A stretch of 50,415 nt of DNA, from assembly GCA_902802795.1 (NCBI GenBank), contig CADCNI010000031.1, positions 1-50,415 on the forward strand, read 5' to 3'. How positions within the stretch are numbered: position 1 is the stretch's first letter; every line of letters starts with the position of its first letter. Both the position numbers and the translations under genes were made by a program. This DNA is from an uncultured Ruminococcus sp. (lineage in GTDB: Bacteria > Bacillota > Clostridia > Oscillospirales > Acutalibacteraceae). This document shows, one piece after another, positions 1 through 46,111 of this stretch. Under the pieces are notes generated by a model, which saw only the letters and a program-made list of their open reading frames with translations, was not told the origin of the DNA and made no database searches.

Positions 1-643
1 ACGTCTTTTGCAAAGTTCATTTTTACCACCCTATTATATTTTAGCATATTGGTTTTGCTTTGGCTATATGAATTTTAAGTTAGTGCTTATGGGGCAGGGC
101 CCTGCTGGGGAGTGGGGCAAGGCCCCATAAGCGCCGCAAACGGCGCGAGCAAGACGCGCTAAGATCCAAGACGGAGCTGGGCGAATTCGGACAGGCAACC
201 CATCTGTATTCGCCCATCCCCGTCGCAAATCTGAGCGCGTTCCGCTCGTTCGGCTTCGCCTCACTCGTGGGGCGCTGCCCACTCCCCGCTGGTGGCGCTG
301 CCCCCAGACCCCTGCCAGGAGGAACTATAGCAATCCAAACAAACAAAAAGACAAGTTCGGCGCGCTGGTGAGCACATGGCTGCGTTGTCGTCCTAGGTGG
401 GCGCCAGCCCACCGTCGTCCTTGATTATTTGGATTGCTATAGTTCCCAGATGACGCTTGTCGTCATCGGCTGGACTCCCACGCTCGCATTCGCTCGCTAG
501 TTACGCTTCGCTTTTTCTTCTTTTTTCTTTTTCTCTCCACTCCCCACTTCCCACTCCCCACTAAATTCTCATTTATCTCCTTAATGATGGATTGAACAGA
601 CCAATTTATGAACAAAAACAGAAAAATAAAATATTGCTTGTAC
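1..643. other. Gene-poor, repeat-rich left edge
   Basis: I see no convincing gene here. A minus-strand ATG at 18-20 preceded by a GGGTGG-like site and a TATAAT could be the start of a gene running off the left edge, but only six codons are visible. Positions 90-320 are very GC-rich and contain a degenerate inverted pair (GGGGAGTGGGGCAAGGCCCC near 116 against its reverse near 270-290), so this may be another intergenic repeat. Positions 449-467 form a small hairpin (GATGACG/CGTCATC). Positions 535-562 carry the short tandem motif CCCACTCCCCACT. The ORFs crossing this stretch are repeat-derived and have no coding character. Confidence 0.5.
328..439 (+). mobile_element. TA-flanked palindromic mini-element, copy 1
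   Basis: This 112-bp element begins TAGCAATCCAAAC and ends ATTATTTGGATTGCTA, so the ends are inverted repeats of about 15 bp with one mismatch. It is flanked by TA at 326-327 and 440-441. The interior holds the family's core hairpin GGTGGGC-GCCA-GCCCACC between two GTCGTCC direct repeats. Compared with the copy at 26191 it lacks about 18 bp near the right end. The flanks GGAAC and GTTCC imply that the empty target was the palindrome GGAACTAGTTCC. It encodes no transposase, so it resembles a MITE of an IS630/Tc1-mariner-like transposase (inference from the TA duplication). Confidence 0.85.
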
Positions 644-18292: not shown

Positions 18293-18385
18293 AGGGAAAT
18301 CAATTTTTGATTTCCAGCTATTAGCCATTAGCGATTAGCTGTTAGCTTTTTTCAAACTTGGTATTGCATATCTTGGTATTGCATA
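18293..18385 (+). repeat. Dispersed repeat B, uninterrupted copy
   Basis: It contains the palindrome GGAAATCAATTTTTGATTTCC, then TTAGC-spaced units (AGCTATTAGCCATTAGCGAT, TAGCTGTTAGC), a T-run and TTGGTATTGCATAT twice. The same sequence at 26148-26353 is interrupted by the TA-flanked element. This copy shows the empty target AGCGAT-TA-GCTGT (TA at 18336-18337). Confidence 0.85.
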
Positions 18386-20018: not shown

Positions 20019-20053
20019 ATACTAATTGTCTACTTTTGATTGACAATTAGTAT
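20019..20053. repeat. Hairpin repeat C (TACTAATT family)
   Basis: ATACTAATTGTC (20019-20030) and GACAATTAGTAT (20042-20053) form a perfect 12-bp inverted repeat. Related TACTAATTATCGAC sequences follow gene stops at 30115 and, on the minus strand, at 44390. Confidence 0.75.
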
Positions 20054-26147: not shown

Positions 26148-26353
26148 GGAAATCAATTTTTGATTTCCAACTGTTAGCCATTAGCGATTATAGCAATCCA
26201 AACAAACAAAAAGACAAGTTCGGCGCGCTGGTGAGCACATGGCTGCGTTGTCGTCCTAGGTGGGCGCCAGCCCACCGTCGTCCTCGCCTCCTTTTGTCTC
26301 CCTGATTATTTGGATTGCTATAGCTGTCAGCTTTTTTCAATCTTGGCATTGCA
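26148..26353 (+). repeat. Dispersed repeat B, interrupted copy
   Basis: The left half (26148-26190) and right half (26321-26353) match the continuous copy at 18293-18385 almost base for base. They are split at TA by the mini-element at 26191-26320. A third, diverged piece in inverted orientation lies at 26425-26485 (TAATCGCTAATCC ... AAATTGATTTCC). Confidence 0.88.
26191..26320 (+). mobile_element. TA-flanked palindromic mini-element, copy 2
   Basis: 130 bp, the most complete copy of the main subtype. Ends TAGCAATCCAAACAA and TTATTTGGATTGCTA; duplicated TA at 26189-26190 and 26321-26322. Comparison with the empty repeat B at 18336 proves the insertion and the TA duplication. It contains the GGTGGGC-GCCA-GCCCACC hairpin, and a CTCCTTTTGTCTCCC tract near the right end that copy 1 lacks and copy 3 has only in part. 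Confidence 0.93.
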
Positions 26354-38198: not shown

Positions 38199-39119
38199 TT
38201 ACTTTTCGCAGATGCTCGGCGCGGCGGCGGCGTATAGTTCTTCCAGCCCCTCACGCGTGACAAATCCGTTGGACGCGCCGCTTGTCAGAATCTTGGCGGC
38301 GGCGAAGACTTCGGCGCGTTTGAGGCATTCCACAGGCGGCAGCCCTTCGCTATACAGGCTGACAAAGGAGCTGAACAGAGAATCCCCCGCGCCGACCGTG
38401 TTGACGGGTGTGCCGAGACGGGCCGCAGTAAGGCTGTAGAATCTGTCCTCGTCGCGGACGTACATCAAAGCGCCGCGTCCGCCTTGTCCCAGCACGATGA
38501 TGCGGCAGCCGTATGCATCCTCGATAGTACGCAGAAATGCCTGCGGCTCACAGGGGAGTTTTTCGTCACTGAGAAACAGAATGTCGGCGTACCGCATAAA
38601 TTCGCTGTTGTAGTCGTCGTGGATATCGCTGAGCGTGTGGACGTCGACGGCGACGGGAATGCCCGCGTTTTTGGCTTTTTGCAGCAGAGAACGGCTGAAA
38701 TTGATGTTGCAGGCGATGACCGCGTTGAAAACCGACAAATCCACACCGTCAAAATCATACGCGGTTTCTTGGATATCTTTCAGATCACACTCAATCCGAC
38801 GCCTGCCTTCGTGGTCGTAAAGCACCGTGGAGGCGGGCGTTTCTTTGAGAGGGCGCTGCACAAGGGTGCAGTCGATGCCCGCTGTGGTCAGCTCCCTCAG
38901 GGCGATGTCCGCCGTTACGTCCTGCCCCAGCAGGGTGACGAGCGTAACGCGGCCGCCGAGCGTCGAGAGGGCTTTGGCGACGTTGCAGCCCACGCCGGAA
39001 ACGCAGTTGCTCACGCCGAAGAAATTGTAGTGGATGGGGGCATAGTCGATGGGAAAGCGATCGACGCGGCAGTCGGTTTCCCAATTGACCAGACCGGAAA
39101 CAAGAAAATGTTGACGCAT
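38199..39119 (-). CDS. PfkB family carbohydrate kinase
   Basis: 306 aa. SGVGCNVAKALSTLGGRVTL near residue 45 is the PfkB substrate-lid region, and VNTVGAGDSLFSSFVSLY near 250 holds the anion hole and catalytic Asp (GAGD). The substrate is not assignable; ribokinase/fructokinase-like sugars are likely. The start is the ATG at 39119, after a perfect AGGAGG (39128-39133); the longer frame would read into the mini-element. It lies downstream of a TrmB-like regulator and is separated from it by mini-element copy 4. Confidence 0.9.
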   Translation of the reverse strand: MRQHFLVSGLVNWETDCRVDRFPIDYAPIHYNFFGVSNCVSGVGCNVAKALSTLGGRVTLVTLLGQDVTADIALRELTTAGIDCTLVQRPLKETPASTVLYDHEGRRRIECDLKDIQETAYDFDGVDLSVFNAVIACNINFSRSLLQKAKNAGIPVAVDVHTLSDIHDDYNSEFMRYADILFLSDEKLPCEPQAFLRTIEDAYGCRIIVLGQGGRGALMYVRDEDRFYSLTAARLGTPVNTVGAGDSLFSSFVSLYSEGLPPVECLKRAEVFAAAKILTSGASNGFVTREGLEELYAAAAPSICEK

Positions 39120-39135
39120 CAATATGACCTCCTTA

Positions 39136-39291
39136 TAGCAGTCCAAACAAATATCAAGACAAGTTCGGCGTGGCGGTTGGCGCATGACTTCGTTGTCGTC
39201 CTTGACTTGCGCCAGCAAGCCTGCGTCCTCCGCCTCGTCCTGCTCCAACCGCCGCTGCCTCCTTTTGTCCCGCTATTTATTTGGACTGCTA
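39136..39291 (+). mobile_element. TA-flanked palindromic mini-element, copy 4 (variant)
   Basis: 156 bp with ends TAGCAGTCCAAACAA and TTATTTGGACTGCTA, flanked by TA at 39134-39135 and 39292-39293. Both ends carry the matching change CAATCC to CAGTCC. The core hairpin is CTTGC-GCCA-GCAAG, with the same loop but different paired bases, and an outer GGCGGTTGG/CCAACCGCC pairing is added. The last three bases (39289-39291) read TAG on the minus strand and are the stop of the TrmB-like gene. The other end sits 2 nt from the Shine-Dalgarno of the PfkB kinase gene. Confidence 0.9.
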
Positions 39292-44160: not shown

Positions 44161-44390
44161 ATACTAATTTTCGATTGAAAGAAGACAATGATTCGCGAGG
44201 ATATTTTGTGCCATGCAAGGATGACGACGACGGCGGACTGGCGCCCGCCTATAGCAATCCAAACAAACAAAAAGACAAGTTCGGCGCGATGGTGAGCACA
44301 TGGCTGCGTTGTCGTCCTAGGTGGGCGCCAGCCCACCGTCGTCCTCCGTGTCTCCCTGATTATTTGGATTGCTATAGTCGATAATTAGTA
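44161..44390. repeat. Repeat C copy with nested insertions
   Basis: ATACTAATTTTCGATTGAAA at the left end and TCGATAATTAGTAT at the right end are inverse and belong to repeat C. Between them lie a partial inverted copy of the mini-element core (44221-44250; GGCGGGC-GCCA-GTCCGCC on the minus strand) and complete copy 3. The stretch shows stacked insertion of small repeats. The right end touches the stop codon of the nlpC-type gene. Confidence 0.7.
44252..44374 (+). mobile_element. TA-flanked palindromic mini-element, copy 3
   Basis: 123 bp, nearly identical to copy 2 apart from one base (GCGCGAT for GCGCGCT) and a short deletion near the right end. TA at 44250-44251 and 44375-44376. It is nested inside repeat C and directly abuts a partial inverted core of the same family. 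Confidence 0.9.
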
Positions 44391-45098
44391 TTATGCGGCA
44401 GTGTTGTTGAAGAGGCGGTAGTAGACATATTCACTGTTAATGACGTTTATTTCGGTGATGATAACACCCTCTTCCGGATAGGCATGGATGACTTTACTGT
44501 CGCCCATGTAAATCGCGGCATGCCCTGTATATTTGGAGGTGAACAAAGGAGGAGGCGCTACGCAGAGATCGCCGGGAGCTACATCGTAAACAGAAATCAC
44601 TTCTCCAATTCCCCGCTCACTCAATCTAAATTGTGCGCCGGCTGTGCGGGGCAGACTGATGCCAAAATGAGCGTAGACCTGTTGGGTGAAGCCGGAGCAG
44701 TCGATCCCTTTCCTCAGGTCGTTGCCGCCGTAGACATAAGGAGTGCCGAGGAACTGCTGTGCATAAGCGACCACCTCATTGCCGTTCAGTGAGGAAGGCG
44801 GCTGCATTTTGGCGGTAGTGGTGGTGGTTTTGACAGTGATTTCAGCGGTAGTGGCGGTCGTGCTTGTCACGGTTGCTTTGGTTGCGGTGGTGGACGGCGC
44901 GGCGGTTTGTGTGGTGGGGGCAGCGGTGGTTGTGTTGACAGAGGATGCCACAAGGCTGTCTGCGGCGCTGTTTGGGCGAAGATTGTGCGGGCTAACAACG
45001 CCGGTGGAAACCAGTGCAATGAGACTCAACGAAGAAAGTATGACCAGAATGGCGGCAGAGCCGCAGAATATGGCTGTTTTTTTAAGAATGTCCAACAT
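44391..45098 (-). CDS. NlpC/P60 peptidoglycan hydrolase, membrane-anchored (paralogue 1)
   Basis: 235 aa. One N-terminal transmembrane helix (about 9-33), a Thr/Ala-rich linker (50-100) and an NlpC/P60 domain (105-235). Catalytic Cys in GIDCSGFTQQVY, His in YTGHAAIYMG, and a third His in KVIHAYPEEG. Such enzymes cut D-Glu/diamino-acid bonds in wall peptides. It is a tandem paralogue of the next gene upstream, with 37 nt between them. The linker and anchor resemble those of the L,D-transpeptidase at 1279. Confidence 0.92.
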   Translation of the reverse strand: MLDILKKTAIFCGSAAILVILSSLSLIALVSTGVVSPHNLRPNSAADSLVASSVNTTTAAPTTQTAAPSTTATKATVTSTTATTAEITVKTTTTTAKMQPPSSLNGNEVVAYAQQFLGTPYVYGGNDLRKGIDCSGFTQQVYAHFGISLPRTAGAQFRLSERGIGEVISVYDVAPGDLCVAPPPLFTSKYTGHAAIYMGDSKVIHAYPEEGVIITEINVINSEYVYYRLFNNTAA

Positions 45099-45135
45099 GA
45101 TATCTCCTCGTATAAAATATTTGCGACTTTGTATC

Positions 45136-45822
45136 TTATCCCGCAGTATTGTTGAAAATACGGTGGAAGGAATAGTCGCCTATGAGATTATCCAGATTGG
45201 TGATGACAACGCCTTCTCCGGGAAGCGCGTTGATTACCATATTGTTGCCCATGTAAATGGCCGCATGCCCCGTGTATGGCATGGAGGGATCATCATAAAC
45301 CGTTGTGCAGAGATCACCGGGGAGAAGCTCATCATAGGAAATCGGCGTACCCTTTTTGTGCTGGGCGGCAGCGGTACGGGGCAGGCTGATGCCGAAATGG
45401 CCGTAAACGAGTTTGGTGAAACCGGAACAATCGACCCCGTTTCTCAGATCGTTGCCCGCGTAGACATAAGACGTGCCGAGAAATTGCTTGGCGTAAGCGA
45501 CAACTTCGTTGCCGTTCAGGGAGGACGGCGCCTGTTTTTTGGTGGTGGTGGTGGTTTTGACTATGATTTCGGCTGTTGTGGTGGTGCTTTTCACTGCCAC
45601 CTCAGTCGTAGTGGTGGTAGGCGCGGTAGTCTGTGCTGTTTCGACGGTGGCAACGGTTGTGTCGGCAGCGGATACCACAAGGCTGTCCGCTGTGCGGTTC
45701 GGGCGAATCTTGTTCGGGCTTACTACGCCGGTGGAAACCAGTGCGATCAGACTGACCGAGGAGAGTGTGACCACAGCGGCGACGGAACCGAAAAAGATAG
45801 CGGATTTTTTGAGAATGTCCAT
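45136..45822 (-). CDS. NlpC/P60 peptidoglycan hydrolase, membrane-anchored (paralogue 2)
   Basis: 228 aa with the same design as its neighbour: helix at about 8-32, Thr/Val-rich linker, then the catalytic domain. Cys in GVDCSGFTKLVY and His in YTGHAAIYMG are kept, but the third residue is Asn (MVINALPGEG) rather than His; both occur in the family. The loop between the active-site Cys and His differs in length and sequence, suggesting different substrate preference after duplication. Start follows AAAGGAG. Confidence 0.92.
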   Translation of the reverse strand: MDILKKSAIFFGSVAAVVTLSSVSLIALVSTGVVSPNKIRPNRTADSLVVSAADTTVATVETAQTTAPTTTTTEVAVKSTTTTAEIIVKTTTTTKKQAPSSLNGNEVVAYAKQFLGTSYVYAGNDLRNGVDCSGFTKLVYGHFGISLPRTAAAQHKKGTPISYDELLPGDLCTTVYDDPSMPYTGHAAIYMGNNMVINALPGEGVVITNLDNLIGDYSFHRIFNNTAG

Positions 45823-46111
45823 AAAAAAATCTCCTTTGCATGGGGTGAAGAATTAAATAGAAACGATATATGATGTTATTATACACCATCGACGGACACA
45901 AATCAAGAGAATTGTTCTGATGTTTGCCTATGTGTGTTATACTGTTTCTTTATTTATGTTACCGTTTTTTTGAGTGAGAGTCTGACAAAAAGTGAGGAAG
46001 AAAAACAATGACTGTTTTGCAAATGAACTATCTTGATTTTTCTGTAAGATGTGCTATAATGAATGCAAATCACTTTGGCGCAAATTTTACCTGACAAGGA
46101 GAACAGAACAT

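What the first reader, a model, noticed from the sequence alone, without database searches (positions are those of the whole stretch)
26148..26353. Filled and empty sites prove a TA-targeting small mobile element
Repeat B is continuous at 18293-18385 (AGCGAT-TA-GCTGT). At 26148-26353 the same repeat is split at exactly that TA by a 130-bp palindrome-ended element, with TA on both sides. Two more copies of the main subtype lie at 328-439 and 44252-44374 and a variant at 39136-39291, each flanked by TA. Ends are TAGCAATCCAAA and its inverse. A TA duplication is the hallmark of IS630/Tc1-mariner transposases; that a transposase acts in trans is inference, as none is encoded here. Four copies in 50 kb suggests hundreds per genome.
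Basis: seen in the sequence. Interest (0 to 1): 0.88.

Follow-up and report, generated by a model that had tools for sequence, protein, structure and literature searches.

The report
IS630-type MITE with conserved hairpin core
This is a real small jumping DNA element of about 156 bases that probably borrows the moving enzyme of a larger element found in sister species, and its folded core is shared by related elements in many gut bacteria that have different ends and so probably use different moving enzymes.

Summary
Confirmed and extended. The TAGCAATCC element is a non-autonomous mobile element (MITE) inserting at TA. Of 62 two-ended copies extracted from this genome, 61 have TA on both sides and 57 sit in Y-TA-R (9% of window TA sites); nine have a paralogous empty site with one TA; one copy splits a gene that is continuous in a sister species. 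The missing transposase was found: IS630-family elements in the genus end in the same TIR; none was found in this assembly.

Corrections. Lengths of 130, 112 and 123 bp are very probably assembly artefacts: apparent deletions start where a k~99-100 graph would stop. The unit is ~156 bp, as in the variant 39136-39291 and in four consensus-identical copies in sister genomes. Copy number is ~110-125.

Beyond the finding: the hairpin belongs to a superfamily in 17 of 135 sampled genera. Length and a core (Watson-Crick pairs alternating with tandem G.A mismatches) are kept while arms covary (45 of 54 pairs), with one strand favoured; no Rfam 15 match. The core also rides on TACTAAT ends with a 3-bp TNA duplication, so it is apparently independent of the transposase. 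What the core does is inferred, not shown.

The parts
26191..26320 (+). A1-type MITE copy as assembled (130 bp; true length probably ~156 bp, part of the right arm lost in a mis-join)
26189..26190 (.). left TA of the target duplication
26321..26322 (.). right TA of the target duplication
18293..18385 (+). paralogous empty site (Repeat B, single TA)
26148..26188 (+). left half of the interrupted Repeat B
26323..26353 (+). right half of the interrupted Repeat B
328..439 (+). A1-type MITE copy as assembled (112 bp; intact left run 94 bp + 5 shared flank bases = 99, the artefact signature)
44252..44374 (+). A1-type MITE copy as assembled (123 bp), inserted at a TA inside a B-type element
39136..39291 (-). 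A2 subtype (TAGCAGTCC ends), full length 156 bp, folds as one hairpin on the minus strand; abuts an AAGGAGG ribosome-binding-like site of a minus-strand ORF
44162..44390 (+). B-type element (TACTAAT ends, identical 3-bp flanks) with the left half of the same core, interrupted by the A1 copy; its right arm is incomplete as assembled
20020..20052 (.). 33-bp B-type ends-only element with identical 3-bp flanks

Best explanation
The finding is a ~156-bp non-autonomous element (MITE) moved in trans by an IS630-family transposase that recognises TAGCAATCC ends and inserts at Y-TA-R, duplicating TA (shown: ends, target, duplication, presence/absence, a matching IS in sister species; inferred: that this transposase did the moving). 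The whole element folds into one long hairpin whose tip region alternates Watson-Crick pairs with tandem G.A mismatches on one strand. That core, not the ends, is the conserved part: it recurs across the bacterial family on elements with other ends, including ends that duplicate TNA. The most likely reading is that the core works as a single-stranded structure (RNA transcript, or less likely an ssDNA hairpin) that either keeps the element tolerated by its host or helps its spread, and has been combined with at least two end/transposase systems.
For: End count and control; 61 of 62 two-ended copies TA/TA and 57 of 62 YTAR vs 9.3% of window TAs; 9 of 62 with an ungapped single-TA paralogous empty site; the copy at G000:C10:47727-47856 splits a frame whose two pieces align to residues 220-508 and 510-988 of one open frame in G013. 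IS630 transposase hits in G013 (over the family cut-off) and G004 (below it) end in the MITE TIR; 13 of 15 loci examined (12 distinct places; 15 of the 16 returned) show a GATTGCTA end followed by TA; ~1-kb elements with TATAGCAATCCAA at both ends around a transposase match in 3 of 25 loci scanned. Four consensus-identical 156-bp copies: G013 three, G009 one. Superfamily: 17 of 200 family genomes, 17 of 135 genera, own included. 22 aligned elements: 45 of 54 pairs with double compensatory changes, all five measures unmatched by 500 shuffles and above every slid control. G.A at columns 60/100, 63/97, 64/96, 66/94, 67/93 in 21-22 of 22 while pairs 62-98 and 65-95 covary; G-U 112 vs A-C 24 cells; that strand folds better in 21 of 22, mean 16 kcal/mol. 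TACTAAT ends: 25 of 30 with identical 3-bp flanks, each T-N-A; 0 of 30 with identical 2-bp flanks. Rfam 15: nothing in the window at gathering scores, nothing on the elements of 14 loci at E <= 1.
Against: No IS with these ends was found in this assembly (0 matches), so the mover in this very genome is not seen. The MITE interior has no similarity to 11 IS loci, so only the ends tie it to the IS. Most family members were collected with a covariance model built on one strand, which favours G-U over A-C and A1-like core letters; A1, A2 and the window B copy were found without it, but the counts are not free of this bias. Template-switch correction within a palindrome can also create paired changes. 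No orientation bias to neighbouring genes (13 vs 10 in tandem pairs, rough ORF calls). One of 22 elements (g127) folds better on the other strand and g43 hardly differs. Artefact reading: 7 of 80 ends do not fit the sum, the regression slope is -0.77 rather than -1, and 10 of 45 short or long forms also carry an internal variant, one of them (L031) only because the script could not orient it.
Confidence: 0.88

Rival explanations
1. The varying lengths (105-179 bp) are real: each copy suffered its own deletion starting beside the central hairpin, for example by polymerase stalling or hairpin cleavage during gap repair.
For: The inner breakpoint lies close to the hairpin and outer breakpoints vary; hairpins are known to provoke deletions (recalled). 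7 of 80 ends do not fit the artefact sum.
Against: Intact length plus the number of flank bases shared with another copy is 97-101 in 73 of 80 ends (99 in 42), with extremes 98+1, 89+10, 84+17; the 7 contig ends with an uninterrupted run give 97-99 and the 2 N-gaps 99. 0 of 62 copies equals the consensus although 39 differ from it only by one junction (35 short or long forms, 4 of 151-155 bp), while 4 copies in sister genomes equal it. Internal variants are found in 13 of 17 copies of 150-157 bp but in 10 of 45 others.
Confidence: 0.05
2. An ordinary palindromic MITE whose arms stay paired only because a DNA palindrome is needed for transposition or is kept by quasi-palindrome correction; nothing acts on the single strand.
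For: Long palindromes are usual in bacterial MITEs (PMC2229807 passages); correction by template switching gives paired changes (recalled); the collection was made with a one-strand model.
Against: A DNA palindrome treats both strands alike; here one strand has G-U rather than A-C (112 vs 24 cells), tandem G.A rather than T.C, and lower energy in 21 of 22. Palindrome correction would erase, not keep, the G.A mismatches (inference).
Confidence: 0.2
3. The core is a binding site of a transposase or another transposition protein on single-stranded DNA, so it serves mobility only.
For: Core and ~156-bp length are kept in most copies seen; hairpin single strands are substrates of some transposases (recalled).
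Against: Elements with TA-duplicating ends and with TNA-duplicating ends share the core, which points to unrelated transposases; the MITE interior is not found in 11 IS loci; ends-only elements such as window 20020-20052 (33 bp) have their own 3-bp duplication, so the B type can apparently move without a core.
Confidence: 0.2
4. The movers of family A are IS5-family (YTAR-targeting) rather than IS630 transposases.
For: YTAR target preference is also typical of IS5 (recalled).
Against: Duplication is TA, not 4 bp; the transposases ending in this TIR match NF033545 transpos_IS630 (E 2.4e-36 over the cut-off, and 5.2e-26 for a fragment below it).
Confidence: 0.03

Closest known systems
RUP of Streptococcus pneumoniae with IS630-Spn1
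   Same: Short non-autonomous element, TIRs like those of an IS630 element, TA at the target, 110 copies in one genome, folds on itself (passages of PMC2229807 and PMC3049150 seen).
   Different: 107 bp rather than ~156; sequence not compared here; no conserved tandem-G.A core known to me; here the core is shared by elements with different ends across genera.
Correia/NEMIS of Neisseria
   Same: ~155-bp form, TA at termini, filled/empty sites, hairpin transcripts cut by RNase III (passages of PMC2229807, PMC10969869); TATAG-type ends (recalled).
   Different: Its ~107-bp form lacks a 50-bp internal sequence; the short forms here are probably assembly artefacts. Sequence not compared; other phylum.
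ERIC/IRU of enterobacteria
   Same: Short repeat with TA at the termini and a stem-loop transcript (PMC2229807 passages).
   Different: 127 bp (abstract of PMC2759123 in a search listing); no mover reported in the passages seen; here the mover family is identified.
IS630 family
   Same: TA duplication, TAGCAATCC ends.
   Different: The element codes for no transposase and shares only the ends.

Membership tests
IS630-derived MITE (family A) | short, no transposase, terminal inverted repeats | tested here: met
   156-bp consensus with inverted ends
IS630-derived MITE (family A) | TA target duplication | tested here: met
   61 of 62 TA/TA; 9 single-TA paralogous empty sites; orthologous empty site
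IS630-derived MITE (family A) | TIR shared with an IS630 element encoding a transposase | tested here: met
   in sister species and relatives, not in this assembly
IS630-derived MITE (family A) | mobilised in trans by that transposase | not testable with these tools
   needs a transposition assay
IS630-derived MITE (B-type, TACTAAT elements) | TA duplication | tested here: not met
   25 of 30 have identical 3-bp TNA flanks, 0 of 30 identical 2-bp flanks
IS5-type (TNA-duplicating) MITE (B-type) | ends shared with an IS5-family transposase | not tested
RUP | 107-bp length | tested here: not met
   156 bp; sequence not compared
known structured RNA (Rfam 15) | match at or above a family's gathering score | tested here: not met
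   window: 0; 14 loci with elements: one match of E 0.62, outside the element and far below its gathering score
REP/RAYT | no target duplication (recalled) | tested here: not met
   TA duplication present; RAYT genes not searched

The most novel reading that the evidence does not exclude
A mobile structured-RNA module: a ~156-nt hairpin with a ladder of Watson-Crick pairs and tandem (probably sheared) G.A pairs, absent from Rfam 15, that spreads through a family of gut Clostridia by being combined with the ends of unrelated transposases (IS630-type, TA; another type, TNA), its core and length outliving the ends that move it.
Probability: 0.45. Interest if true: 0.78.

Novelty: new variant of a known kind. 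Interest (0 to 1): 0.6.

Why it matters
It joins a MITE family of uncultured gut bacteria to an IS630 mover with the same ends, so trans-mobilisation can be tested directly. It shows how a short-read assembly can produce a convincing series of 'nested deletions' in identical repeats, with a simple arithmetic test (intact run + shared flank = constant) that exposes it. And it suggests that what is conserved in some MITEs is not the ends but a strand-specific folded core, which raises a testable question: do such elements carry a functional RNA from one transposase to another?

Tried and rejected
My first reading was that the copies carry real nested deletions beside the hairpin; rejected. The only long IS630 transposase of this genome (C3:50316-51233, L125) was considered as mover and rejected: no TAGCAATCC in its locus, and the stretch shared with its G006 relative has no such ends. 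Exact paired-TIR patterns gave nothing in 17 other genus genomes or in genome contigs; that was due to the 80-110 gap, as the covariance model then found matches in 10 of 17 other genus members at E <= 0.1, some weak. Orientation to genes: no bias. Plasmids: no match. One viral contig carries the core on other ends. Paper searches (only the top rows of each were listed) showed nothing on this family; the library holds open-licence papers only. In one search the line on A-type elements is wrong (the script took the length of a pattern with brackets), so A-type counts are taken. In some searches an early alignment (A1) had two rows on the wrong strand and was replaced.

Full report
OBSERVATION. 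The filled and empty sites are as described: element 26191-26320, TA at 26189-26190 and 26321-26322, empty copy at 18293-18385. The other copies (328-439, 44252-44374, variant 39136-39291) are there. In the whole genome (G000, 2,817,754 bp, 99 contigs; the window is contig C31) the end TAGCARTCCAAA occurs 103 times forward and 77 reverse, with 0 in the reversed control; the central hairpin sequence occurs 113 times with up to 3 mismatches; a covariance model gives 125 matches, some on both strands of one copy.

LENGTH ARTEFACT. I fetched copies listed (each listed only its first 100 places, so some copies are missing) and extracted 62 with both exact ends and 177 single ends. Lengths run from 105 to 179 bp with one breakpoint near the central hairpin and the other variable. 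The intact run from an end plus the number of flank bases that this copy shares with another fetched copy is nearly constant: of 80 ends with an intact run of 80-100 bases, 73 give 97-101 and 42 give exactly 99. The other 97 ends stop earlier (a variant, or the far side of a joint) or, in one case, later, and were not used. Regression of run on shared flank has slope -0.77 (s.e. 0.14), r -0.54. Extremes: 98+1, 96+3, 89+10, 88+11, 84+17. Ten contigs end inside a copy; the 7 with an uninterrupted run give 97-99, the other three (L091, L092, L124) carry an earlier variant and stop 96, 116 and 97 bases from the end; both N-gaps seen give 99. This is what a graph assembler with k about 99-100 would do with identical repeats, followed by joining of contig ends (inference; no reads were seen). 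None of the 62 copies, and none of 128 own-genome sources, equals the consensus, although 39 of 62 differ from it by one junction only (35 of the 45 short or long forms; 4 of 17 of 150-157 bp). Internal variants occur in 13 of these 17 and in 10 of the 45 others, one of the ten (L031) only because the script could not orient it. In sister genomes with fewer copies, four copies equal the consensus at 156 bp (G013 three, G009 one). I conclude that the unit is ~156 bp and the window lengths 130, 112 and 123 are artefacts. Seven of the 80 ends do not fit (sums 86, 86, 87, 93, 94, 96, 105); I did not trace them one by one.

MOBILITY. TA stands on both sides in 61 of 62 two-ended copies; the target is Y-TA-R in 57 of 62 against 9.3% of TA sites in the window (binomial p 5e-53). 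Eleven copies have a paralogous sequence, among the loci fetched, that aligns without gap across the joined flanks; in nine of them the paralogue has one TA. One copy (G000:C10:47727-47856) splits a reading frame; the pieces (291 and 485 aa, scanned apart; one sub-threshold TAXi_C match) align at 50% and 65% identity to residues 220-508 and 510-988 of one open frame in G013:C129, without the element. So presence/absence exists at an orthologous site, and element plus 2 bp account for the interruption.

THE MOVER. Of 18 genus genomes, 6 have an IS630 transposase match at E <= 1e-10. Those in G013 (contig C173, cut at its start) and G004 (C47, a fragment below the cut-off) end in ...TGTCTTGCTGATTATTTGGATTGCTA|TA and ...TGTCTTGCTGATTTGTTGGATTGCTA|TA; the MITE ends ...TGTCTCCCTGATTATTTGGATTGCTA|TA. 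A DNA search with this IS finds 8 of 18 genomes, none in G000; 13 of 15 loci examined (12 places; 16 loci were returned) show a GATTGCTA end followed by TA, many at contig edges as expected for a collapsed multi-copy IS; a decayed copy in G011 shows a left end TAGCAATCAAAAAAATGGAAAGACAA. In named GTDB genomes 30 loci encode relatives; elements of 1012-1023 bp with TATAGCAATCCAA at both ends were found in 3 of 25 loci scanned (L209 uncultured Ruminococcus RUG10904, L212 uncultured Clostridia, L213 Oscillospiraceae); their longest open stretches are 206-217 codons, so the transposase lies in more than one frame there, and activity is unknown. The MITE interior has no similarity to 11 of these IS loci. 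The IS630 of G000 itself has other surroundings.

THE CORE. The element folds as one hairpin (z -7.3 on the C-first strand, -8.8 on the T-first strand, variant -9.9 on the latter). The covariance model built from 14 full copies finds matches in 11 of 18 genus genomes at E <= 0.1 (G008 is marginal) and in 17 of 200 family genomes at E <= 1e-5, from 17 of 135 genera, own included (the two other members of the own genus shown there had none; at most 15 candidates per genome were scored). Lengths are mostly 153-161 bp although ends and arms differ: TAGCAATCC, TAGCAGTCC, TACTAAT, TAGTCGA, AGGCACTGT, GAACGG. In 22 aligned elements (12 of the genus, 10 of other genera) 45 of 54 pairs have double compensatory changes; 94% of cells pair, and on all five measures 0 of 500 shuffles and no slid control reach the observed value. 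A smaller test of the tip stem alone (14 distinct of 16 sequences) agrees: 4 of 7 pairs with double changes. In the core, pairs at columns 59-101, 62-98, 65-95, 68-92 are three apart; between them lie 5'-GA-3'/3'-AG-5' mismatches: 63/97 G.A in 21, 64/96 A.G in 22, 66/94 G.A in 21, 67/93 A.G in 21, 60/100 G.A in 22 of 22, while 61/99 is C.A in 13 and A.G in 9; 62-98 is GC 11, TA 6, AT 5 and 65-95 GC 10, CG 8. That such tandem mismatches form sheared pairs is recalled knowledge. One strand is preferred: G-U 112 cells vs A-C 24, G-U > A-C in 20 of 22 elements (one tie, one reverse), lower folding energy in 21 of 22 (mean 16 kcal/mol). A count by self-alignment on 14 members gave the same direction, weaker (13 of 14, one tie). 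Rfam 15 has no match. Caveat: most rows were found with a model of this strand.

DIFFERENT ENDS, DIFFERENT RULE. Thirty elements with TACTAAT...ATTAGTA ends in the fetched loci have identical 3-bp flanks in 25 cases, all T-N-A, and identical 2-bp flanks in none. Four of the 30 are 31-51 bp and lack the core; of the 26 of 132 bp or more, 22 have the 3-bp repeat. The rows are not all independent: L148 (G009) and L165 (G000) have nearly the same flanks and look like one insertion in two species. TNA is a rule of IS5 subgroups as far as I recall; the mover was not found. So the same core occurs on ends that duplicate TA and on ends that duplicate TNA. In the window the A1 copy at 44252-44374 sits inside such a B element (44162-44390), at a TA in its core.

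MECHANISM. Shown: insertion at TA, ends shared with an IS630 element, conserved folded core. Inferred: that the IS630 transposase acts in trans; that the core acts as RNA (or ssDNA); that it is independent of the mover. Comparison: RUP with IS630-Spn1 is the nearest precedent for the mobility (passages of PMC2229807, and PMC3049150); Correia/NEMIS and ERIC for hairpin transcripts (PMC2229807; PMC10969869, passages). The rows listed held no paper on this family that I could recognise by title or abstract.

Noticed in passing
window 20020-20052: A 33-bp ends-only B-type element (TACTAATTGTC...GACAATTAGTA) with identical 3-bp TNA flanks: a very small mobile element.
   Followed up: partly
L125 (G000:C3) about 883-1135: Another inverted-repeat unit, TATAAATGAGCAT...ATGCTCATTTATA, ~250 bp, near the genome's own IS630; looks like a further TA-type MITE.
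   Followed up: no
window 169-545 and L022, L076, L082, L094, L110, L122, L123: A GC-rich repeat family (GGGGCGCTGCCCCACTCCCCGC..., CGCTCGCTAGTTGCGCTTCGC) that several times holds A1 insertions.
   Followed up: no
G015 (L154, L173, L176, L178, L180, L182, L185): 39 model matches in this genome, most to the hairpin tip only; in the 7 loci read the element is B-type, ~177 bp, with an extra GCTGTCGACGAGTCGACAGC palindrome beside the core.
   Followed up: no
L141, L167: B-type copies whose hairpin tip is inverted (GGGCGCCAGCCC instead of GGGCTGGCGCCC), as if the tip had flipped.
   Followed up: no
L148 (G009:C3) and L165 (G000:C18): Nearly the same flanks around a B-type element in two species: probably one old shared insertion.
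   Followed up: no
L270 6731-6891 (IMG/VR contig): Same core on a further kind of ends (TAGTGGT..ACCACTA, 161 bp) in a contig classed as viral.
   Followed up: partly
window 39114-39135: The A2 element abuts the ribosome-binding-like AAGGAGG of a minus-strand ORF, so it forms its upstream region.
   Followed up: no
window 44779-45873: Direct repeats of 66 and 181 nt (families D2, D3) inside one mechanically listed ORF.
   Followed up: no
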